The notes below the pieces were generated by a model that saw nothing but the letters and a program-made list of their open reading frames with translations, made no database searches and was not told the DNA's origin. This document shows positions 949-9,974 of a stretch of 64,000 bases of DNA, piece after piece. Every line of letters starts with the position of its first letter. Within the stretch, counting starts at the first letter, position 1. Position numbers and translations under genes: made by a program. Source of the DNA: Bacteroidales bacterium (GTDB lineage: Bacteria > Bacteroidota > Bacteroidia > Bacteroidales > Muribaculaceae); NCBI GenBank assembly GCA_910575545.1, contig CAJTFH010000008.1, positions 1 to 64,000 on the forward strand, written 5' to 3'.

Positions 949-1147
949 TGTTTTGTGTGTTGATTTTAACTCAGTGCTATCAACCAATTCACTGCAGTTT
1001 GGCTTATCTCTTTCCTCAAAATTGTCTGCAAATTCAAAATTTGTGTCAACATTTTGTCAACGAAGCTGCACCGTCAGCACCGTGGCATCGTGGTGTATGG
1101 CGTCAGGAGTTATGATTTTTTACCGCCGAGACGCTTTCTTTCAGCTT

Positions 1148-1774
1148 CTAAGGCTTCAAGGAAATGGATTTCGACACACGGTCATAGATAACCTCTGCAG
1201 CTGTATGTCCGTGGGCGGCAAAGTGCATCTTGTTCTGCACTGTCTTGAAGAACTGCTGGGTTGTTTCCGTCCGAGGGTCATAGTCGATACTTAGGGCGTA
1301 TATTTCAAGAATCTTACGGTAGAACACCTTTTCCGAACTGCGAATGTCGCGGATTCTCGCAAGCAGCTCATCAAAGTAATTCCCATGTCCTGCATTTTTA
1401 AGTAGATCATCGTTCAGGGCAAACCCCTTGATCATGTATTCTTTCAACACTTGGGTAGCCCACTGCCGGAACTGCACACCCCGATGCGAATTGACACGAT
1501 ATCCGACACTGATAATCATGTCGAGGTTATAGTAAGAAACGGTGTAAGTTTTTCCGTCGGCAGCAGTTGTTGCATTTTCTGCAACAACTGAATTTCGCTG
1601 TAACTCACCACTTTCAAGTATATTCTTTATATGTCTTGAAATGGTCGACTTATTGCGTTGAAACAGTTCCGCCATCTGGTCGGCCGTAAGCCACACCGAT
1701 TCATTGGCAAGCCGAACCTCAATCTTCGTCTCGCCTCCCTGCGTCTGAAATAGTATTATCTGTCCGTTATCCAT
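1148..1774 (-). CDS. RhuM family protein, C-terminally shortened
   Basis: The N-terminal half is typical RhuM: the segment WLTADQMAELFQRNKSTISRHI resembles a winged HTH (residues about 28-50), followed by YYNLDMIISVGYRVNS and RGVQFRQWATQVLKEYM. Known RhuM proteins, as I recall, run about 330-350 residues; this one stops at 208, just after the conserved HTAAEVIYDR. A different frame downstream (1175 to 1110) reads VEIHFLEALEAERKRLGG and ends in a basic tail, which looks like a genuine C-terminus. A frameshift or an internal deletion is therefore plausible. It is the last gene of the minus-strand cluster, starting 2 bases after the stop of the gene at 1777-2049. RhuM function is unknown, but it often accompanies restriction-modification genes. 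Confidence 0.75.
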   Translation of the reverse strand: MDNGQIILFQTQGGETKIEVRLANESVWLTADQMAELFQRNKSTISRHIKNILESGELQRNSVVAENATTAADGKTYTVSYYNLDMIISVGYRVNSHRGVQFRQWATQVLKEYMIKGFALNDDLLKNAGHGNYFDELLARIRDIRSSEKVFYRKILEIYALSIDYDPRTETTQQFFKTVQNKMHFAAHGHTAAEVIYDRVSKSISLKP

Positions 1775-1776
1775 AT

Positions 1777-2049
1777 TTAAAAATCATCGTCCATCATGTC
1801 GTAGCCGTCCTGCTCGTCATGAAAATCGTCATACGATTGTGAATAGCCATAATCATAGTTGTCATAACGAGAGTAACTATTTTCATGGCGGCGACTAAAG
1901 CCTGTGTGCGTATCATTGTTACCAATAATATCCTTGTGGCCAAAGTTGCTGGGCGTATCCGATAGATTACGTTTTGATTCATTATGCTTGTGAAAGCCAA
2001 ACAGCCAACGAAACAAGAAAAACTCTCCTATGTAATTCCAAAATGTCAT
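1777..2049 (-). CDS. Small protein with hydrophobic N-terminus and acidic tail
   Basis: The 90-residue protein begins with an aromatic, hydrophobic stretch (FWNYIGEFFLFRWLFGF), perhaps a membrane or lipid anchor. A polar middle part follows, and the tail is rich in Asp and Tyr (DDFHDEQDGYDMMDDDF). I do not recognise a named family. It lies between the nuclease gene (15 bases upstream) and rhuM (2 bases downstream) on the same strand, so it is very probably cotranscribed with them. The acidic tail could mimic DNA or bind a partner, but that is speculation. Confidence 0.6.
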   Translation of the reverse strand: MTFWNYIGEFFLFRWLFGFHKHNESKRNLSDTPSNFGHKDIIGNNDTHTGFSRRHENSYSRYDNYDYGYSQSYDDFHDEQDGYDMMDDDF

Positions 2050-2064
2050 ATTTGTAGAAGATGA

Positions 2065-2994
2065 TTAATTTATCATATCTCTATATTTAAGATATACATT
2101 CCCAGTCTGAGCGGCTTCTCTTCTTTTGCGAGAAAGTAAGTCTGATAACGTAATACGTTCATCAAGCACCGCAATTAAATCTTCTCCGTCCATTAGTAAA
2201 ACCCGTTTATCAGGGGAAATTCTAAACTGGACAATACCTTCTTCAGAAAAGCCTGAAATCGAAATGAAAAGGCCTAATGTATTCTCAAATTTACGACCTA
2301 TTTTGCTCGAAAATGAGTCCAAATCAGATAGTGGGGTCTGTTTGTTTCTCCATTTAGCCTCAAGTAGATATTCTTCATAATTAAAAGAGAAGGCACCGTC
2401 AATCTGCTCCCCAGTAACCTTAAATGAACCTTTGGGGTCTAAATCTGACAATTCAAATAGACGATATAATATTTTTTCTAATGCGAAACCGCTTCCTTGA
2501 CGGTCTGATGAAATAGACCAAGAGTAAAAGTCGTTTTTTAATTCCGATAAAATCTGTTTTGTTCGGTTAAGCTGGTTTTGACGAGCTTGAGCCTTCTCCC
2601 TACGTTGTTTAGCTTCTTCAAGTTCTTTTTGAATATTTTGATGACCACAAACATGGGTTCTTAATGCTTTCACAGCTTCCTTAGCTGCTTTAGCCTTGTC
2701 TTTGCCTCCATCCAAAATGTCCAAATGTGAAAAATCAGAAAAATCAGAAACAGAGAAAATTAATTGCATTAAAATATCGTGAGTCCTATCTCCATTTTTA
2801 ACGAGCATGTCTATCACGCGAGCAGCTATGTTTTTCTTTAAATCAGTCCAATCAATTACTGCTAAAATGCCGGTTTCATCACCAATTATTTGGTATAGAA
2901 ATCTTTTAAGATCTCTTTTATACCAATATATCACAGTTAGAGCTTTTTCCAAAGCGACAATTGCTTGTGGCGATATTTTTTTGTTCTCTGACAT
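2065..2994 (-). CDS. PD-(D/E)XK (Mrr-like) restriction nuclease
   Basis: The first 110 residues are helical, a Lys/Glu/Gln-rich coiled coil follows at about 120-152, and the C-terminal half carries a nuclease core. In that core, GFALEKILYRLF gives the helix Glu near 173, QIDG the Asp near 199, and LLEAKW the Glu212-x-Lys214 pair. This D-(12)-ExK spacing and the GEQIDGAF context match Mrr-type restriction endonucleases. Its start lies 4 bases after the helicase-methylase gene, so the two are probably translated together, and it may be the cleavage partner of the methylase or a separate DNA-end nuclease. The specificity is not predictable. Confidence 0.8.
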   Translation of the reverse strand: MSENKKISPQAIVALEKALTVIYWYKRDLKRFLYQIIGDETGILAVIDWTDLKKNIAARVIDMLVKNGDRTHDILMQLIFSVSDFSDFSHLDILDGGKDKAKAAKEAVKALRTHVCGHQNIQKELEEAKQRREKAQARQNQLNRTKQILSELKNDFYSWSISSDRQGSGFALEKILYRLFELSDLDPKGSFKVTGEQIDGAFSFNYEEYLLEAKWRNKQTPLSDLDSFSSKIGRKFENTLGLFISISGFSEEGIVQFRISPDKRVLLMDGEDLIAVLDERITLSDLLSRKRREAAQTGNVYLKYRDMIN

Positions 2995-2998
2995 AGTA

Positions 2999-5900
2999 TC
3001 ACATAGGTTTAATCATGGATTCGATGAAAGCGATTTCATCCTTGGAAAGATTGTATTTGGCGTAGAGCTGAATGTCGATTTCTTCGATGCTCTTGCTCCA
3101 GTCGATGTCGCTGTTAGCCGTGAAGTCCTGCATCGGGACATTCGCCCAAGTATCCTTAGGGTTGTGTTGCGTTGCCTTGAGGGTACCTAATAAACACCTG
3201 GCAAATTTTGACTTGACGTATTTCAAACACGCGGACGCCTCCTCAGCTGAGGCAAACTTGCCGATGCTGAGGAAGGTGTCCGTGTGTCCGATTACCGGCA
3301 CGCCGATTACCGGCGTGCTGAGCACCTCGCCGATGGCACCTGTGCCATTGGCCTCAGGCACAAATACGTTGTAGTAATTCAAGAAATCGCAAGGTTGTAG
3401 ATATTTGGCGTTTATCCATCGTGTTTCACGATAGCCCTTGATCCTACCCATTATCTGAACGCCTTTATCCGAGAGCTTATCTTCTGAATCAACAAAGATT
3501 TCAGTGAGATTCTCAAAGGCATTAGATGTAATTTTAGCAGCAGTTCCCTTTCCTTGAACCTCATATATACGTGGCACTTCGGTTAAAGCTAAATCTGAGA
3601 AACGATATATGCCTTGTGATGAAACAGTTTCAGAAAAAGCCCCTCGAACAAAGTCTTTATGAATCCCTACTTTGTCCATTATAGAAACAAGTTGAGGAAA
3701 TTCCGAGAAGAATCCAATTGCCCCAAACTCTTTGTTTGCATTTCTAAGACCAATAGCAACTCCGCCTTTAATATCTACTGTCGGGAATACTTCATTGGAT
3801 TTCTGGAAGTAGTCTACGACCTTAAAATGAGGGTCTGCCAACATTCTATCCATCCATTCGGCTGGTGTCTGACCGGCCTTGAAAAGATAACGTCCGGGGG
3901 TAATCAGAGATACTATAGGTGAAAGTTTAAACGCGGCATCATAGAACAGGTGATAAATTGGAGCTTTACGAGTGCTTTCTCCTTCCTCCTGATACGGCGG
4001 GTTTCCGACAACAGCTTTTATTTTCACGTTCTTTCCAACTAAGTCGCCCACTTTTTTGATGAAAAGTTCGGGCTGGTTCTTGATTTTGTTTATTAGGTCT
4101 TCTGGAGCCCACATATTGGTATTCCCTTTGCGGAAGCCGAGGAGTGTCCGCTCTGTGATGCGCTTTGCCATTGGGGTTTTGCAGATAACAAAGATGTTTT
4201 CTGCAACAGCAGCGTCCCAAATGGCTTGATGTTCTTCGAGGGATTCCGGCGAGAACATCTGATTACGCAGCCGCGAGCGGTAGATGTTATAAGCGAGGTA
4301 CAGCGGATAAAGACCCGACTTTGAATTTATTTCAAGGAGGTGGCTATCCGGTGTAAATACCTCTGCGGTAACATCTCCACGGTCGACAAAGCGCGGTTCT
4401 TCGATGGTCTCTGAGAAGTCCTCGTTGAAGAACGTGTAGCCGCCGAGACAGTCGCTCATGTGCATATTCACCACGCGCCACGGAGTCAAGACCGTTTCTT
4501 TATCAGGATTGCGGAACGTGGCGAAGATGGCAGCAATGCGTTCGATGCGTTCCTCGATAGAGAGACGGTCGGCAGCGCGAGCCATAGCGCGTATGCGTTT
4601 GGCGGCGGCGGTGAAGATGTCGGGGTCGTAATACTTCTTGAAGGCGTTGAAGCGTTGTTTTGTAACGCCTTTCGGCATAAATTCTTCCCACGATTGCGGG
4701 TCGACAAGTTGAGTGAAGTTGTCGATTGTCAGTTCTTCGTCCTCGTTTTCAACCTTGGCTCCGTAAATCATTAGCGGCATACGGATGGAGATACCACGAA
4801 GAATTGAGATAGCGTCCTCTTTGACTTTCTTCTTTTTCTTCAATTCTTCGAGACGAGCCTTTTCTTCGGGAGTAAGCTCGCGTTTCTTTTTCTTTTCGAG
4901 CTTTTCCTTTTCCTCGTATTCCTCGTTGGTGAGGCCCTGGTCGTTTACGGTAATGTCGTTAGACTTACCCATCGCCTTAGTCTGACCGATAATGCCTTTC
5001 AGCTCGTTGAACTCTTTGATGTCAACATCGGTCAGGCGCATCAGCTTGTCATTGTAGAGGTAGCCGTCCTCAAAACCGTTCTGCACCACGCGCTCAACGT
5101 AAACACGTTTGAGCTGTTGAAGCATATGCTCGGTATCGAGCTGCTTCATTTGGCTACCCTCAATCGAGATGATCGGGCAGAAATTCAGGAACTCGCCGAG
5201 CTGCTGGCGCTCGCCTGAAGATTGCTTTCCTGCCTTGGTGGAAATTTTCGCGGTTTCGGCCAGCACTTTGAGAGTGCGGTCGGGAGCGAAGTCAAACACA
5301 TAGCAATCTTCCTTGACGCGGCCATTGAAAGTGGCAGGTGTCTGCACACGGAAAATGGTCTGCATATAAGCAGAGGCGGCAGTGTTGAAGCTGCCCGACA
5401 GCATGAACACGCCCATCCACGGCTTGACGCTCACGCCGGTAGTCAGTCGACCGCAAGAGAGCGTAATGGTGCGCGTCTTGTCGGGGTCAGGGCCGATAGC
5501 GTCGGTAACCTTTTTGAGAGCTTCCTCGTTGGCTTCTTCCTCGTCGCCGTCACCGGCCACGTTGACGATTTCAAAAAGCCCGAAAACGGGGTGATTGCGC
5601 AGCATGGCGGCGAGAGCCTTTGCCGACTTAACGCCCGGCACCATCCAAAGGGTGTGACGGAAGATGTCGCGATAGCGTTTGTTGGCAAAAGGATACATAC
5701 TTTCCTCGTCAGTCTTCGTGAGAAGGTCGAGGAAATTCTGAACGTGGCTGCGGTGAACAAATTCGCCGCTGTCGTTCACGCGGAAAAACTCGCGGAAGTT
5801 GAACGCTATATCCTCGTCGACATACTCGTTTATGAGTCTGCCGAGGTCGTAAGTATAGATGTTCAGCCGTGGCAGACCCGCGTAGGGATTATGGTCGCCC

Positions 5901-6946
5901 GGGTGCTCTTCGTCCCACCGGACCTTGGCACGTTGCTCCATGACATAATCCCAAGTGTAGATTTCTTCCTCCTTGAAATCGTCGAGCAGATTGAACGGAG
6001 TGCCGGAGAGACGAAGCACTTTCGTTTTCTCCTTGGTAAGCTCTTTCATCACAGCCTTGCCAAGTTCGGTCTGCGTACCCTCGTGGGCTTCATCTACAAT
6101 GATGAGATCCCACGGGGTCGAGAAAATATCGTTGTTCTTGTCGAAGTTGCCGCCGACAAGCTCAGAGCCTCGGAGGTCTTGTATCGAGGCGAAGTAGATA
6201 TAGCGACATTCCTCACGACGGGCGCGGCGTTCGAGAGAGACGAAAGTATCGCCGTTGGTCTTTGAACCATAGGCGTATTCGTCGTTATCGTAGAATATCT
6301 TTCCGAAGTCCTCGAACCAGCCCGCATCGACCACCGGGCGGTGAGTGAGGATAAGGACGCGGCGGAAGTCGCCACTTTCCTTAACGACTTGCAGAGCCGA
6401 GAGCGTTTTGCCAAAACGCATTTTGGCATTCCATAGCATCTGATTGCCTTTCTTGAACTGTTTGAGAGTTTTATCGATGGCTTCGCGCTGCTCCGGACGG
6501 AACTGTATGGGCGACTGCCCGACAGTGATTTCAGAGCCTTTCAAGGCTTTGCGGCCCTCCTTTACAGCGGCGATAGCTCGTTTGGCAGTTTCGAGGTCGC
6601 AGCAGAACCACTCGTTTGCACCGTTCACCTTATCAAATACTTTGCGTTTGATACCGCTGCGGAGAAGCACATCGTGAACCTCCTTGTCGTTGACGGCGGC
6701 AATTTTGCCGTCGCGCACGAAAATTGCGATTTCCGTGTGCAAGAGTTCATAAGTGATTCCGGCAGTCTTGGTGTACTGGTCAATACGAGCCTTGGCCGCT
6801 TTATTGAGCGCACTGCTGTTGGGCGGCAGCGTAATGTTGCCGTCCTCAAAAGTGGCTTCGCCAATTTTGAGGCAGTCGCTGTGTGCCGCATCGGGTATGC
6901 GGAACACATAGATTAGTTTGGCTTTAAGATTAGAGAAATATTCCAT
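2999..6946 (-). CDS. GIY-YIG-like nuclease / SF2 helicase / Eco57I-type N6-adenine methylase fusion
   Basis: This 1315-residue protein reads as three modules. Residues about 8-125 resemble the T5orf172 branch of GIY-YIG nucleases: IYVF, then LKIG, an Arg-containing helix, KEVHDVLL and NEWF. Residues 150-560 are a superfamily 2 helicase with MRFGKT (176-181), VDEAH (284-288), LSGTP (313-317) and QTIFRVQTP (529-537). A Lys/Glu-rich linker spans about 675-710. Residues 860-1315 are an N6-adenine methylase: EVFTP (862-866), a motif I-like LEINSKSGL (871-879) and NPPY (982-985), followed by a probable recognition region. It would act on foreign DNA as a single-chain restriction-modification translocase. 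Its start is 6 bases after the methylase-like gene, and the nuclease follows by 4 bases. The GIY-YIG assignment is the least certain part. Confidence 0.85.
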   Translation of the reverse strand: MEYFSNLKAKLIYVFRIPDAAHSDCLKIGEATFEDGNITLPPNSSALNKAAKARIDQYTKTAGITYELLHTEIAIFVRDGKIAAVNDKEVHDVLLRSGIKRKVFDKVNGANEWFCCDLETAKRAIAAVKEGRKALKGSEITVGQSPIQFRPEQREAIDKTLKQFKKGNQMLWNAKMRFGKTLSALQVVKESGDFRRVLILTHRPVVDAGWFEDFGKIFYDNDEYAYGSKTNGDTFVSLERRARREECRYIYFASIQDLRGSELVGGNFDKNNDIFSTPWDLIIVDEAHEGTQTELGKAVMKELTKEKTKVLRLSGTPFNLLDDFKEEEIYTWDYVMEQRAKVRWDEEHPGDHNPYAGLPRLNIYTYDLGRLINEYVDEDIAFNFREFFRVNDSGEFVHRSHVQNFLDLLTKTDEESMYPFANKRYRDIFRHTLWMVPGVKSAKALAAMLRNHPVFGLFEIVNVAGDGDEEEANEEALKKVTDAIGPDPDKTRTITLSCGRLTTGVSVKPWMGVFMLSGSFNTAASAYMQTIFRVQTPATFNGRVKEDCYVFDFAPDRTLKVLAETAKISTKAGKQSSGERQQLGEFLNFCPIISIEGSQMKQLDTEHMLQQLKRVYVERVVQNGFEDGYLYNDKLMRLTDVDIKEFNELKGIIGQTKAMGKSNDITVNDQGLTNEEYEEKEKLEKKKKRELTPEEKARLEELKKKKKVKEDAISILRGISIRMPLMIYGAKVENEDEELTIDNFTQLVDPQSWEEFMPKGVTKQRFNAFKKYYDPDIFTAAAKRIRAMARAADRLSIEERIERIAAIFATFRNPDKETVLTPWRVVNMHMSDCLGGYTFFNEDFSETIEEPRFVDRGDVTAEVFTPDSHLLEINSKSGLYPLYLAYNIYRSRLRNQMFSPESLEEHQAIWDAAVAENIFVICKTPMAKRITERTLLGFRKGNTNMWAPEDLINKIKNQPELFIKKVGDLVGKNVKIKAVVGNPPYQEEGESTRKAPIYHLFYDAAFKLSPIVSLITPGRYLFKAGQTPAEWMDRMLADPHFKVVDYFQKSNEVFPTVDIKGGVAIGLRNANKEFGAIGFFSEFPQLVSIMDKVGIHKDFVRGAFSETVSSQGIYRFSDLALTEVPRIYEVQGKGTAAKITSNAFENLTEIFVDSEDKLSDKGVQIMGRIKGYRETRWINAKYLQPCDFLNYYNVFVPEANGTGAIGEVLSTPVIGVPVIGHTDTFLSIGKFASAEEASACLKYVKSKFARCLLGTLKATQHNPKDTWANVPMQDFTANSDIDWSKSIEEIDIQLYAKYNLSKDEIAFIESMIKPM

Positions 6947-6952
6947 GGCCGA

Positions 6953-7954
6953 TTATTTGATAAGGTCGATGAATCGGATTTTTTGTTTGGATTTTGATGC
7001 GCTCCAGTCTTTGATTAGAGCGTAAGTGCCGTTATGGGCGCGGATGTCGCCGGTCTTGCAACCTTGACATTGGGTAATGGTTTCCGTCTCACCGAAAAGG
7101 TCAACAACAACGGTGCGACGTTCGCCGCACGAGTTAGGAATAACCCCTTTGAGGCCGTCCATCTGCCAAATGTTCCAAGAGATAATGTAAGCGATATATT
7201 GCAAAGATTTCAGTTGCGGTTCTTTGCCGAACTTGGCACGGAAATAGTCGAGGAAAGTATAAAGAAGCGCTTCGCGAGCGAGCACGAGATTGTCGCCCTG
7301 CCACTCGAAGCCGTAAGTGCTCATAAAAGCGGATTGTGCCGCTTTGAGCCATTCGCCGGTTGTCGAAGTGTTTTCACTGACAACTCGGAGTTTGCGGTCA
7401 AGCATACCGATACGACGTTCAACTGGGATAGGCTCGCCTGTCACGGTGTCGTACCGGCTGACGAGATAAGGAGCCTCGCCGCAGGTGATTTCAAGGCGGT
7501 TCTCATTCACATAGTCGCGCCAGTTTTTGCCCTCAGGGAAAACGACGGGTTCGGCATTGACAATCCACGAGTGGGAACCGTCGGGATTGTCGACCTCGGT
7601 ATTGAAAACGCCCTCGCGACCAAACCAGGCATTATCGACGAGGTTGTTCTGCTTGTTGCATATCCACGAAGGAGTGAACACCTCTGCCATCTCGCGGCTG
7701 CGCTGTTGCTGCTGCTCGCGAGACTTGACGGCTCGCGGCACGATTACGTTGCCGTTTGAGCCGGTGATAGCCTCAATGGTTATTTGGTCGCCGTACTGAA
7801 AACCGTCGCCTCGGTCGGCATAGTTATCCGTCGCCCAGAAAATATTGACTTGCTGCTCATCAGTGCTCAACGTGTGGTCCTTGAGCAGAGCATTAAGCAA
7901 TTCGGGCGAAAGCTCGAATATTTCAGTTTCTTTTATGTCGACTTGAAAATCCAA
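6953..7954 (-). CDS. N6-DNA-methylase-like subunit lacking the NPPY motif
   Basis: The 333-residue protein contains REMAEVFTPSWICNK near residues 87-101, the motif X-like start of Eco57I-type adenine methylases, also present in the neighbouring fusion protein. No NPPY or DPPY is visible, so it is unlikely to methylate alone. A CQGC pair near the C-terminus might bind metal. It resembles proteins annotated as restriction endonuclease subunit M. It lies immediately upstream of the fusion gene (6 bases) and 22 bases downstream of the membrane-protein gene. A role as specificity or accessory subunit of the methylase is inferred from context. Confidence 0.7.
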   Translation of the reverse strand: MDFQVDIKETEIFELSPELLNALLKDHTLSTDEQQVNIFWATDNYADRGDGFQYGDQITIEAITGSNGNVIVPRAVKSREQQQQRSREMAEVFTPSWICNKQNNLVDNAWFGREGVFNTEVDNPDGSHSWIVNAEPVVFPEGKNWRDYVNENRLEITCGEAPYLVSRYDTVTGEPIPVERRIGMLDRKLRVVSENTSTTGEWLKAAQSAFMSTYGFEWQGDNLVLAREALLYTFLDYFRAKFGKEPQLKSLQYIAYIISWNIWQMDGLKGVIPNSCGERRTVVVDLFGETETITQCQGCKTGDIRAHNGTYALIKDWSASKSKQKIRFIDLIK

Positions 7955-7976
7955 TTCTTAATAGTGCTTATTTAAA

Positions 7977-8639
7977 TTAAAACTTTTTATCAGTAATGGC
8001 GCTACTCACTTTTGTAATTGAGTCTACGATTTCTCGGCCAATATTGGCTTTCTCAAAAGACATATAAGCATGATTGCTTGGATATAGCTGAAAAATGCCA
8101 AAATCTTTATCTTCAGATTTTAACGATACTCTAATAAAACCCTTTGGCAAGCTCTCAATATCTTTATAAGCAGTTATCAGAATGTCAAAATATATACTTT
8201 CAAGTGGAGGTATAACAAAAGATTGATTCGATAAGAATTCTTTAAGAATACCAAATCGGTATATGTCCTCATTCTCTAAACAATTCTCAATGTTGATAGA
8301 AACATCTTTGGCCACAACATTTGCAGAGTTAAGAATGCGTAATTTAAACCAACTATTAGAGGGGATTAGCTGGCAAGAAAGATAAGGTGAATGTTCTTCG
8401 CCCCATTGTCTCTTGAGCTCTTCTAATTGTAGTTTATTCTGTTCAAGTGTTTTTGCAGTGAAGAATATCATTACAAAAGAAGCAAGAGCACCAATTAGGG
8501 AACCAAAGAATGAAAGCCATACGGTATTGTCTCCTACAATAGGGGTAAATGCAGGAATTAAAAGAACTGCGTTTAAGATTATTGGAATGGCTATGAATGC
8601 AATAATAATCCACCACCAATATTTCTTTAGAATATCCAT
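7977..8639 (-). CDS. Two-helix membrane protein of the defence cluster
   Basis: I place the start at the internal ATG at 8639, giving MDILKKYWWW, because the longer frame from 8732 overlaps the upstream DUF3791 gene. The 220-residue product has two membrane segments (about 8-30 and 42-62), a short charged coiled coil (TLEQNKLQLEELKRQW) and about 140 residues of soluble beta-rich domain. The family is not recognised. It begins 4 bases after the DUF3791 stop and ends 22 bases before the methylase-like gene. Membrane proteins in defence operons often act as effectors, but nothing in the sequence proves that here. Confidence 0.65.
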   Translation of the reverse strand: MDILKKYWWWIIIAFIAIPIILNAVLLIPAFTPIVGDNTVWLSFFGSLIGALASFVMIFFTAKTLEQNKLQLEELKRQWGEEHSPYLSCQLIPSNSWFKLRILNSANVVAKDVSINIENCLENEDIYRFGILKEFLSNQSFVIPPLESIYFDILITAYKDIESLPKGFIRVSLKSEDKDFGIFQLYPSNHAYMSFEKANIGREIVDSITKVSSAITDKKF

Positions 8640-8643
8640 ATTT

Positions 8644-8865
8644 TTATGCGACTTTGCCGGTTTCGATTTCGGATTTGAGGAATTGGAAGATATAGACGGC
8701 TCCCTGATAGTAGAGACCACATTCGGGGTCATTTAGCTTGGCGAAAGTGGTTGATGAATATAGTTCGTCGAGGGCACGGTGTATGTCCCAGCCATATTCT
8801 GCCATAAGCATCTCGGCAAGTTCTGCTGCAAGGCATTCTATCTGAAACTGTATGTCTTGTGTCAT
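8644..8865 (-). CDS. DUF3791 protein (second copy)
   Basis: The 73-residue helical protein (start MTQDIQFQIECLAAEL) matches the DUF3791 pattern: two long helices, a central YGWDIHRALDEL and a C-terminal aromatic GLYYQGAVYIFQFL. Its ATG overlaps the DUF3990 stop as ATGA, a mark of translational coupling. With the other DUF3791 gene at 9347 it brackets the ART-like gene. A role as antitoxin or adaptor to DUF3990 is plausible because, as I recall, the two families often occur together; it is not shown here. Confidence 0.7.
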   Translation of the reverse strand: MTQDIQFQIECLAAELAEMLMAEYGWDIHRALDELYSSTTFAKLNDPECGLYYQGAVYIFQFLKSEIETGKVA

Positions 8866-9350
8866 AATTCGATGCGTTTTAAGAGTTGTATGGCTTTGGG
8901 CGTGCCGAAAAAGTATTGTACAGCATGGTCGCCCTTGAATCTCAGTTCTTCGACCAATGCCGATGCCGACAGATAGCCCATTATGAAACGGCGAATCTGA
9001 ACGCCAACAGTATCGTCGGCAATAGGCCCGATAACAATGTCGTAGGGATGAGCAGGAATGTCGGAGTTGTTCTTGCGGTTCATCACCACAAATTCCGCCC
9101 ATTCTTCTGAATAGTCAGGGAAAACCTTTATGTTTAGCCTGATCCTTTTCACTTCGTCCTCATCGAACTCAAAGCACGATAAAGTGGCGGCTCCTTCGCT
9201 GAGAAATCGAGTTGTCCGGACTGCCATTTCCATAGCTTGGTCGGGATTGGCATTGAGATAGAAGCCTTGCCCGAAGTCCTTGCCGCGCTTGCTGCGTGAG
9301 AGGTCAATATGCTCAATGGCTACGTTTGAACCGTGATAGAGGCGTATCAT
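8862..9350 (-). CDS. DUF3990 ADP-ribosyltransferase-like protein
   Basis: The start is set at ATG 9350, which overlaps the upstream TGA (ATGA), giving 162 residues; the longer frame from 9374 is unlikely. The protein opens with IRLYHGSN, then KDFGQGFYLN, WAEFVVMNR and PYDIVIGPIADD, the signature blocks of DUF3990, which belongs to the ADP-ribosyltransferase (ART) fold clan. His in YHG and Tyr in GFY would be NAD-contact residues. It is probably a toxin-like enzyme that modifies a host or phage target. The flanking DUF3791 genes are translationally coupled on both sides, and the XRE gene lies upstream. The target is unknown. Confidence 0.75.
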   Translation of the reverse strand: MIRLYHGSNVAIEHIDLSRSKRGKDFGQGFYLNANPDQAMEMAVRTTRFLSEGAATLSCFEFDEDEVKRIRLNIKVFPDYSEEWAEFVVMNRKNNSDIPAHPYDIVIGPIADDTVGVQIRRFIMGYLSASALVEELRFKGDHAVQYFFGTPKAIQLLKRIEL

Positions 9351-9571
9351 ATCTTGCCTCCTTCCCGTTGGCAAATGACCTGAAGGTCTGAAACAGCGTC
9401 ATCAATGGAAAGGGTATGTTCGGCGGCATAGCAATCAAGAAGGAAATCTATGCCCGTGAAACGGCGCAGATATGCGTAGGCCTGCATGTTGGAGAGCTGA
9501 TACAGTTGTGCGAAAGCTCCGACACAAGCCACTACATATTCAATTCTATCAAATATTTCTTTCTTGTCCAT
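9347..9571 (-). CDS. DUF3791 protein (first copy)
   Basis: The 74-residue helical protein begins MDKKEIFDRIEYVVACV and contains YAYLRRFTGIDFLLDCY and SIDDAVSDLQVICQ, matching DUF3791. It is more diverged from the copy at 8644 than a recent duplication would be. Its TGA overlaps the ATG of the DUF3990 gene, and it starts 2 bases after the XRE gene. The arrangement suggests regulator, partner, enzyme, partner in one transcript. Confidence 0.7.
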   Translation of the reverse strand: MDKKEIFDRIEYVVACVGAFAQLYQLSNMQAYAYLRRFTGIDFLLDCYAAEHTLSIDDAVSDLQVICQREGGKI

Positions 9572-9573
9572 AG

Positions 9574-9807
9574 CTATGCTTTATTGCTTACAATTAAATC
9601 TTTAACATCAATATCAAGTAATTCAGAAATCCTTACAAGAGTATCAAGAGAGGGCTGCATTTTATTGGAACACCATCGGGAAACCGTAGCTTCATTTTTA
9701 CCGACCTGTTCGGCGAGCCATTTGCCGGTTTTACCGTTCTCAACCAATGCAATCTTTATCCTGTTTATCTTCTGTGATTCCATTTTCTGCTTGCTTAATA
9801 AATACAA
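9574..9807 (-). CDS. XRE-family transcriptional regulator
   Basis: The 77-residue protein carries a Cro/CI-type HTH: KIALVENGKTGKWLAEQVG, then NEATVSRWCSN as the recognition helix, then PSLDTLVRISELLDIDVKDLI. ATG 9807 is the longest start; ATG 9783 (MESQKINR) is an equally good alternative. It is the promoter-proximal gene of the ten-gene minus-strand cluster and lies 17-40 bases downstream of a clear promoter at 9825-9854. It probably represses its own operon, holding the ART-like protein and restriction genes under control. Confidence 0.85.
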   Translation of the reverse strand: MYLLSKQKMESQKINRIKIALVENGKTGKWLAEQVGKNEATVSRWCSNKMQPSLDTLVRISELLDIDVKDLIVSNKA

Positions 9808-9824
9808 TTCTTTGATGTTATACG

Positions 9825-9854
9825 CAAAATTACGAATAAGTTCTGAGATTACAA
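9825..9854 (-). promoter_or_regulatory. Promoter of the defence operon
   Basis: On the minus strand TAATTTTG (9832-9825) fits the -7 consensus TAnnTTTG, with TTG at 9854-9852 spaced 19 bases upstream. It lies directly ahead of the XRE gene. No other convincing promoter is seen between genes down to 1148, consistent with one long transcript. Confidence 0.65.
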
Positions 9855-9974
9855 TCGAAATCAGTATAAAACTCAGTACGGACGTATCTTAAATACTTAC
9901 AATGGCATAATTTTTAAAGCATAGATTGCTTGTTTTTTGTTTGCGGGAGATACGTTAATATTCTAAAAAATAAT

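What the first reader, a model, noticed from the sequence alone, without database searches (positions are those of the whole stretch)
1148..9854. Ten-gene single-promoter operon joining an ART-like module, a membrane protein and a restriction-modification fusion
All ten genes are on the minus strand. Spacings run 2, -4, -4, 4, 22, 6, 4, 15 and 2 bases, with one good promoter at 9825-9854. The order is XRE, DUF3791, DUF3990, DUF3791, two-helix membrane protein, methylase-like, GIY-YIG/helicase/methylase, PD-(D/E)XK nuclease, small acidic-tailed protein, RhuM. I know of no named system with this whole set. It may be a multi-tier defence locus: restriction first, NAD-using toxin or membrane effector as back-up.
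Basis: partly seen in the sequence, partly recalled or inferred. Interest (0 to 1): 0.85.

Follow-up and report, generated by a model that had tools for sequence, protein, structure and literature searches.

The report
Swappable defence cassette behind toxin-antitoxin frame
A gut bacterium carries ten tightly packed genes in which a restriction system sits between two conserved ends (a toxin-antitoxin start and a small acidic-tail protein plus RhuM at the finish), and a related bacterium carries the same two ends around a quite different restriction system, so the locus looks like a socket into which defences are plugged.

Summary
The ten-gene minus-strand operon is real, with the spacings claimed and one conserved Bacteroidales-type promoter. 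It is composite. The left frame (promoter, XRE, DUF3791, DUF3990, DUF3791; 8636-9860) and right frame (acidic-tail protein, RhuM; 1181-2049) are each 93% identical in DNA to relative L133, but between them L133 has an unrelated restriction system (MmeI-type IIG, helicase, GIY-YIG). The left frame, whole or decayed, precedes several kinds of defence genes: 10 of 26 loci examined, against 0 of 17 other DUF3990 trios. Restricted to frames with an intact trio it is 4 of 15, a marginal excess. The window's core (M plus RES) lies without the trio in 22 of 23 relatives with enough upstream sequence. So this is not one obligate system but a frame with exchangeable cassettes. Most novel: the 90-aa acidic-tail protein, an unnamed family of the window's bacterial family (probably Muribaculaceae) that ends several unrelated defence operons (15 of 29 confident members within 100 bp of one).

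The parts
9825..9855 (-). Bacteroidales-type promoter (-7 element TAATTTTG beginning at 9832, -33-like ATTG at 9855-9852), start of the left frame
   Evidence: only such site on the minus strand of 1100-9900; TAnnTTTG at the same place in L133, L210, L225, L226
9574..9783 (-). XRE/HTH_3 regulator, left frame
   Evidence: HTH_3 1.4e-9; 98.6% identical over residues 9-77 in L133; near full length in 7 of 26 frames, window included
9347..9571 (-). DUF3791 (first), probable antitoxin-side protein
   Evidence: PF12668 2.8e-21; PDC-M13A; dN/dS 0.03 against L133
8862..9350 (-). DUF3990, ADP-ribosyltransferase-fold probable toxin
8644..8865 (-). DUF3791-like (second), end of the left frame; DNA homology to L133 stops at 8636
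   Evidence: PDC-M13C 1.3e-14; no Pfam hit; 100% identical protein in L133; break
7977..8639 (-). membrane protein of 220 aa (two helices by eye), part of the cassette; family in 7 of 247 genomes, beside type I genes in L148 and beside Vsr/Dcm-like genes (by eye) in L149 and L150
   Evidence: no Pfam family over its cut-off
6953..7954 (-). M: PADLOC MTase_II protein, partner of RES; relatives annotated 'restriction endonuclease subunit M'
   Evidence: PDLC03390 4.6e-119; beside RES in 27 of 29 relatives, two of them weak; plasmid relatives
2999..6946 (-). RES: N-terminal GIY-YIG (T5orf172)-like domain, ResIII helicase, Eco57I methylase with NPPY, hypervariable region at about residues 1100-1200 (probable target recognition domain)
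2065..2994 (-). PD-(D/E)XK (Mrr_cat-like) nuclease of 309 aa in the variable slot after RES
   Evidence: homologue L136, Mrr_cat 2.8e-6; 65% identity; D199, E212, K214 kept; 3 of 247 genomes
1777..2049 (-). acidic-tail small protein (90 aa): N-terminal WNYIGEFFLFRWLFG, variable linker, C-terminal DDFHDEQDGYDMMDDDF; right frame starts at its ATG
   Evidence: no family in Pfam, PADLOC, NCBIfam or PHROGs
1148..1774 (-). RhuM, C-terminally truncated (208 aa against 331 aa in L133); right frame
   Evidence: PF13310 3.9e-69 matching profile 1-145 of 252; PDC-S05; L133 homology ends at 1181

Best explanation
The operon is a conserved expression frame with an exchangeable defence cassette. Left frame: one promoter, an XRE regulator and a DUF3791-DUF3990-DUF3791 toxin-antitoxin trio whose middle protein has an ART fold of the RES/ParT kind. 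Right frame: a small acidic-tail protein and RhuM. Whole restriction systems are swapped between the two by recombination in the frames, so that an incoming cassette falls under the XRE-side promoter and behind a trio that can stabilise the island. In this genome the cassette is a split Eco57I-type system: M plus RES modify and cut according to a variable target domain, with an Mrr-like nuclease as extra. Shown: both frames shared with L133 around unrelated cores, conserved promoter element, purifying selection on frame genes, ART fold of the model, loss of DUF3990 in some cassette-bearing frames. Inferred: co-transcription, exchange by homologous recombination, toxin activity, and the role of the trio as stabiliser or abortive-infection guard.
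For: Frames 93.0% (8636-9860) and 93.4% (1181-2049) identical to L133 with unrelated genes between. In G171 the same kind of split core sits behind a toxin-less left frame, and in G055 an MmeI-type core lies between a toxin-less left frame and an acidic-tail gene. Other genes behind left frames, whole or decayed: type I hsdRMS (L210), BcgI-like IIG plus S (L233), PDC-S57 with PDC-S11 (L217), a PDC-S57-like protein (L232, by eye), NsnA/GmrSD-like (L234). 10 of 26 frames against 0 of 17 other trios, one-sided Fisher P 0.003. M-RES relatives as close as 89%/88% (L063) have neither frame. -7 element conserved in the 4 frames printed. dN/dS 0.00-0.27 for five frame genes. DUF3990 model. Hypervariable target region.
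Against: No transcript data. 16 of 26 left frames carry no recognised cassette. Several cassette-bearing frames are decayed: XRE is near full length in 4 of the 10 and DUF3990 is intact in 4 of the 10; with intact trios only, the excess is 4 of 15 against 0 of 17 (P 0.04), and 3 of 14 (P 0.08) without the window itself. Both frames together, with long RhuM, were seen only in the window and L133; elsewhere RhuM is a fragment (L141, L147, L148, L233). Many ORFs were named by eye, and the comparison loci were picked by hand's list. No recombinase or attachment site was identified. A promoter match this good occurs by chance in 31% of simulations. My confidence was lowered from 0.68 to 0.6.
Confidence: 0.6

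Rival explanations
1. Two-tier functional system: restriction first, and when a phage overcomes it the antitoxins fail and the ART toxin consumes NAD+ or modifies a host target (or the membrane protein acts), aborting infection.
For: The trio subtype recurs in front of unrelated restriction or defence genes. Precedent for restriction genes linked to toxins and RhuM as multi-pronged defence (PMC3710099, passages read). DUF3990 model nearest Xre-RES and ParT toxins. Tight spacing and one Bacteroidales-type promoter.
Against: DUF3990 is intact in 4 of 10 cassette-bearing frames but in 11 of 16 without cassette: precisely deleted in G171 and G055, frameshifted in G219, not found in L232, L233 and L234. 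Most frames and most cores examined occur without the other. No assay.
Confidence: 0.18
2. Coincidental neighbours in a defence island: a TA trio, a restriction system and RhuM landed side by side, and the packed spacing reflects general genome compaction.
For: The trio and the core each occur independently. The excess is marginal when only intact trios count. No shared motif was seen by eye in the 25 bases upstream of acidic-tail starts.
Against: Against L133, homology breaks just after the DUF3791b stop and resumes at the acidic-tail ATG, with both ends kept around unrelated cores. The same kind of last gene follows several unrelated defence operons.
Confidence: 0.15
3. Exchange platform moved by a dedicated mobile element whose recombinase uses the frame ends as sites.
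For: L133 and L210 share the upstream 248/250-aa protein (MSKLYDDVKKQG..., by eye). Genes outside the frames differ between loci. DUF3990 trios also occur on viral contigs.
Against: No integrase tied to the frames. The conserved acidic-tail start varies at synonymous positions, as a protein does rather than a DNA site. No plasmid match for the left frame and no viral match for the acidic-tail family.
Confidence: 0.1

Closest known systems
PADLOC candidate PDC-M13 (DUF3791-DUF3990-DUF3791 trio)
   Same: All three trio proteins match PDC-M13A/B/C models.
   Different: The window's trio has its own XRE and a restriction cassette behind it; the other trios looked at stood without restriction genes downstream (17 of 17 assessable).
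Xre-RES and ParST toxin-antitoxin systems (ART-fold toxins)
   Different: No credible sequence match to solved structures. DUF3791 proteins flank the toxin; invariant residues include Y5, S8, G29-F30-Y31 and Q145, with H6 in 13 of 14.
Type II/IIG restriction systems annotated 'restriction endonuclease subunit M' plus Eco57I methylase
   Same: M and RES match PADLOC MTase_II and REase_MTase_IIG. The pair also occurs on an Enterococcus faecium plasmid, with an HTH gene before and a DUF262 gene after it, and M relatives are on 17 plasmid records.
   Different: Here GIY-YIG-like domain, helicase and methylase are one 1315-aa protein; on the Bifidobacterium longum plasmid methylase and helicase are separate genes.
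Restriction loci with RhuM, HEPN or Doc companions ('multi-pronged defence')
   Same: RhuM next to restriction genes with a toxin as second tier, as described in PMC3710099 (passages read).
   Different: There RhuM was found with PrrC-like HEPN proteins; here with an ART trio at the other end of an exchanged core.

Membership tests
PDC-M13 | three proteins matching PDC-M13A, B and C in one operon | tested here: met
   PDLC04435 1.3e-26, PDLC04438 9.6e-42, PDLC04444 1.3e-14; order and overlaps
PDC-M13 | anti-phage activity | not testable with these tools
   needs phage challenge
ADP-ribosyltransferase fold (RES/ParT-like toxins) | ART fold | tested here: met
ADP-ribosyltransferase fold (RES/ParT-like toxins) | NAD+ use and toxicity | not testable with these tools
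   needs expression and NAD+ assay
Type II/IIG restriction-modification | adenine methylase motif NPPY and methylase family match | tested here: met
   RES: PF07669 1.7e-21 and NPPYQ in the sequence
Type II/IIG restriction-modification | nuclease domain | tested here: inconclusive
   GIY-YIG part of RES below cut-off itself (0.015), above in homologues L080 and L090; Mrr_cat in the homologue of the next gene
Type II/IIG restriction-modification | variable target recognition region | tested here: met
   mean identity 17-26% at residues 1101-1200 against 67-90% over residues 1-950, 12 homologues
One conserved ten-gene system | XRE-to-RhuM order conserved in relatives | tested here: not met
   no second fetched locus with the whole order; frames kept in L133, core exchanged
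RhuM family | full Virulence_RhuM domain | tested here: not met
   window copy matches profile positions 1-145 of 252; 331-aa relative in L133

The most novel reading that the evidence does not exclude
The acidic-tail protein is a shared, translationally linked last component of otherwise unrelated defence operons (split IIG, MmeI-type IIG, type III, Gabija-like, Shango, FRG-linked loci) in Muribaculaceae: an N-terminal aromatic-hydrophobic helix holds it to the membrane or a protein, and its conserved acidic C-terminus ending in F acts as a common brake or adaptor for DNA-acting enzymes. Together with the XRE-ART frame it would make a general socket into which defence cassettes are plugged.
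Probability: 0.35. Interest if true: 0.82.

Novelty: new variant of a known kind. Interest (0 to 1): 0.6.

Why it matters
If right, defence systems in these gut bacteria are exchanged as cassettes between fixed, regulated ends, which explains how a new restriction system can arrive already under control, and gives a handle for finding unknown defence genes: read what lies between the frame ends. The acidic-tail family would be a new kind of general defence accessory protein, directly testable with one gene in several operons.

Tried and rejected
Ten-gene unit as one conserved system: rejected, no second fetched locus has that order. SSB-tip mimicry by the DDDF tail: the only SSB found in the genome (sequence, translated by eye) has no acidic tip, so there is no support. 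The acidic-tail start as a DNA attachment site: its codons vary at synonymous positions (mean dS 1.13 against dN 0.16 in the 38 of 66 pairs that could be computed; sequences). Structure of the 309-aa nuclease from one sequence: pLDDT 43, not used. DUF3990 and M profiles and RES against solved structures: nothing credible. Acidic-tail family and nuclease in viral contigs: none. Left frame in plasmids: none. XRE dN/dS failed in the script, so five frame genes are reported.

Counting choices. RES regions: 29 fetched (20, 9); 3 hold nothing upstream of M (L073, L085, L087) and 3 hold under 800 bp (L064, L068, L076), so absence of the trio is judged on 23; one, L070, has the DUF3791 genes. Acidic-tail family: 43 match rows; the 29 at E <= 3.4e-7 were classified and the 14 weaker rows dropped (one is a second piece of the G080 gene; G016, G057, G092, G093 and a second G007 row were not fetched for it). 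Of the 29, 15 begin within 100 bp of a co-directional gene of a defence operon and 20 lie within 350 bp of defence genes; in the other nine none was recognised. By eye or weak among the 15: G024 (DUF3791-like pair), G194 (type III gene not scanned, its acidic-tail copy has an in-frame stop), G222 (next gene itself has no PADLOC hit), G035's second locus (FRG gene only). One search's test used 16; recounted as 15. Null rates of 5-15% there are assumptions, not measured. Left frames: searched 160 of 247 genomes and matched 47; 26 loci were classified by hand, contig-end and short partial matches dropped; L148 (G031, type I system) is left out because only 70 bp of the frame remain. L235 (Fic-like gene next) and L231 (DUF1016-like gene inside) count as without cassette; in L234 a 113-aa ORF lies between frame and GmrSD-like gene; in L210 the gap is 323 bp; L232 and L233 keep only remnants of the frame. 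Comparison: 20 DUF3990 loci taken by hand's list; L210 and L211 belong to the frame subtype and were set aside; L207 ends 20 bp after the trio and is not assessable, so 17; L201 has large unclassified ORFs upstream. The first test used 18 and gave P 0.002; one search repeats it with 17 and with intact trios only. Much ORF naming is by eye.
Full report
Observation. Pfam and PADLOC name XRE, DUF3791, DUF3990, a second DUF3791-like protein, M (MTase_II), RES (ResIII plus Eco57I) and RhuM; NCBIfam and PHROGs add little. The membrane protein has only weak unknown-function PHROG matches and the 90-aa acidic-tail protein none in any of the four libraries. The only Bacteroidales-type promoter (TAnnTTTG with a -33-like box; consensus recalled) on the minus strand of 1100-9900 is at 9832; in L133, L210, L225 and L226 the same element stands at the same place. 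Sigma-70-like matches inside the operon are not excluded as promoters.

Relatives of the restriction core. RES is found in 38 of 247 genomes of the family. Twenty-nine RES regions were fetched. M lies beside RES in 27 of 29 (partial in L073, weak in L090 and L091); the other two contigs begin inside RES. Among the 23 with at least 1000 bp upstream, only L070 (genome G171) has the DUF3791 genes next to M, and there DUF3990 is missing. RES is 67-90% identical in 50-residue steps along residues 1-950 but 17-26% at 1101-1200 (12 homologues), as expected of a target recognition domain. The gene after RES varies: Mrr-like nuclease (window), FRG protein (L086), an ATPase and a Dam-like protein (L070, by eye), unnamed (L078). 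On an Enterococcus plasmid the same pair has an HTH gene before and a DUF262 gene after it.

The frame. In genome G182 (same contig as the named Muribaculaceae bacterium Isolate-036; hence the family name is an inference) window 8636-9860 is 93.0% and window 1181-2049 is 93.4% identical in DNA, while between them lie four other genes: an MmeI-type IIG enzyme, a 251-aa protein without family, a DEAD helicase and a T5orf172 protein. Homology breaks just after the DUF3791b stop and begins again at the acidic-tail ATG. In G055 the same kind of MmeI set lies between a DUF3990-less left frame with only the end of XRE and an acidic-tail gene. Five frame genes are under purifying selection between window and G182 (dN/dS 0.00-0.27).

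How general. The left frame DNA was searched in 160 genomes. Of 26 loci classified by hand, 10 have a restriction or defence cassette behind DUF3791b: split Eco57I-type (window, G171), MmeI-type (G182, G055), type I hsdRMS (G037), BcgI-like IIG plus S (G077), PDC-S57 with PDC-S11 (G009), a PDC-S57-like protein (G239), NsnA/GmrSD-like (G154) and a type I remnant (G219). Sixteen have none recognised. XRE is near full length in 7 of 26 (4 of them with cassette: window, G182, G037, G219); the others are the trio or its remnants without it, or with an XRE fragment. DUF3990 is intact in 15 of 26: 4 of 10 with cassette (window, G182, G037, G009) and 11 of 16 without. Of 17 assessable other DUF3990 trios none had a restriction gene recognised within 350 bp downstream. 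One-sided Fisher P: 0.003 for 10 of 26, 0.04 for the 4 of 15 with intact toxin, 0.08 for 3 of 14 when the window is also left out. G031 has a type I system with only a scrap of the left frame and a RhuM scrap at the other end. DUF3990 occurs in 121 of 247 genomes.

The acidic-tail protein. An alignment of 15 members shows a conserved N-terminal MxFWNYIGEFFLFRWLFG, a free linker and a C-terminus mostly ending DDDF or DDF (net charge -8 to -10 in the last 20 residues, pI 4.05-4.93). A profile finds it in 37 of 247 family genomes, and in 3 of 295 order-wide genomes, all three of the window's own family; a named scan gave 15 loci, 14 from Bacteroidales records and one MAG labelled Clostridia. Of 29 confident members, 15 start within 100 bp of a co-directional gene of a defence operon and 20 lie within 350 bp of defence genes (recount and test, with assumed base rates). 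Neighbours include MmeI-type IIG (L133; L141, L147 and L152 by similarity), type III restriction (L140, L173, L178, L181), Shango SngABC (L139), GajA of Gabija with a UvrD-like helicase (L137), FRG proteins (L086, L146), a YhcG nuclease (L182), a DUF3791-like pair (L142) and a downstream DUF3990 trio (L177). In nine no defence neighbour was recognised, so the protein is not confined to defence loci. Synonymous sites of the N-terminal stretch vary, as for a selected protein.

Mechanism. Shown: shared ends, exchanged cores, conserved promoter element, ART fold of the model, toxin loss. Inferred: one transcript under XRE control; exchange by homologous recombination in the frames; the trio stabilises the island or acts as a guard; RES and M restrict and modify by a variable target domain; the acidic-tail protein is an adaptor or brake.

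Literature. RhuM with restriction genes and multi-pronged defence: PMC3710099 (passages read). PDC-M13 and PDC-S05 as abundant candidates in rumen genomes: PMC13356809 (passages read). DUF3990 in the ART clan: PMC7955679 (passage read). Searches for DUF3990/DUF3791, RhuM with restriction, PADLOC/PDC-M13, Muribaculaceae anti-phage defence systems (no paper), cassette exchange, small proteins of defence operons, Bacteroides hotspots and ART with restriction listed, as far as titles and abstract starts show, no paper on this frame or on the acidic-tail family; only listings of at most 12 papers a search were seen, and no paper was read beyond the passages named.

Noticed in passing
L137 1015-9539: A cytosine methylase, a DUF2357/PDDEXK_7 protein, GajA and a UvrD-like helicase lie in one run that ends in an acidic-tail gene.
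   Followed up: partly
L133, L141, L147, L152: MmeI-type IIG enzyme, DEAD helicase (92-97% identical) and T5orf172 protein form a set whose second gene is exchanged: a 246-251-aa family in three loci, an unrelated 277-aa protein in L152.
   Followed up: partly
L237, L239, L240, L243, L246: DUF3990 with DUF3791-like neighbours (L237 with an XRE-like gene) occurs on viral contigs of IMG/VR.
   Followed up: no
window 6953-7954: M carries an invariant EITCGEAPYLVS stretch and ISWN[IL][WF]QMDG but no NPPY, so it may be a non-catalytic methylase partner of RES.
   Followed up: no
G000:C4:167421-167876 (L083): A second, distant DUF3990 (34% identical) with DUF3791-like neighbours lies elsewhere in the same genome; no restriction gene was recognised beside it.
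   Followed up: partly
L231 1541-2519: A 254-aa protein resembling DUF1016 by eye stands where DUF3990 would be, between XRE and DUF3791b.
   Followed up: no
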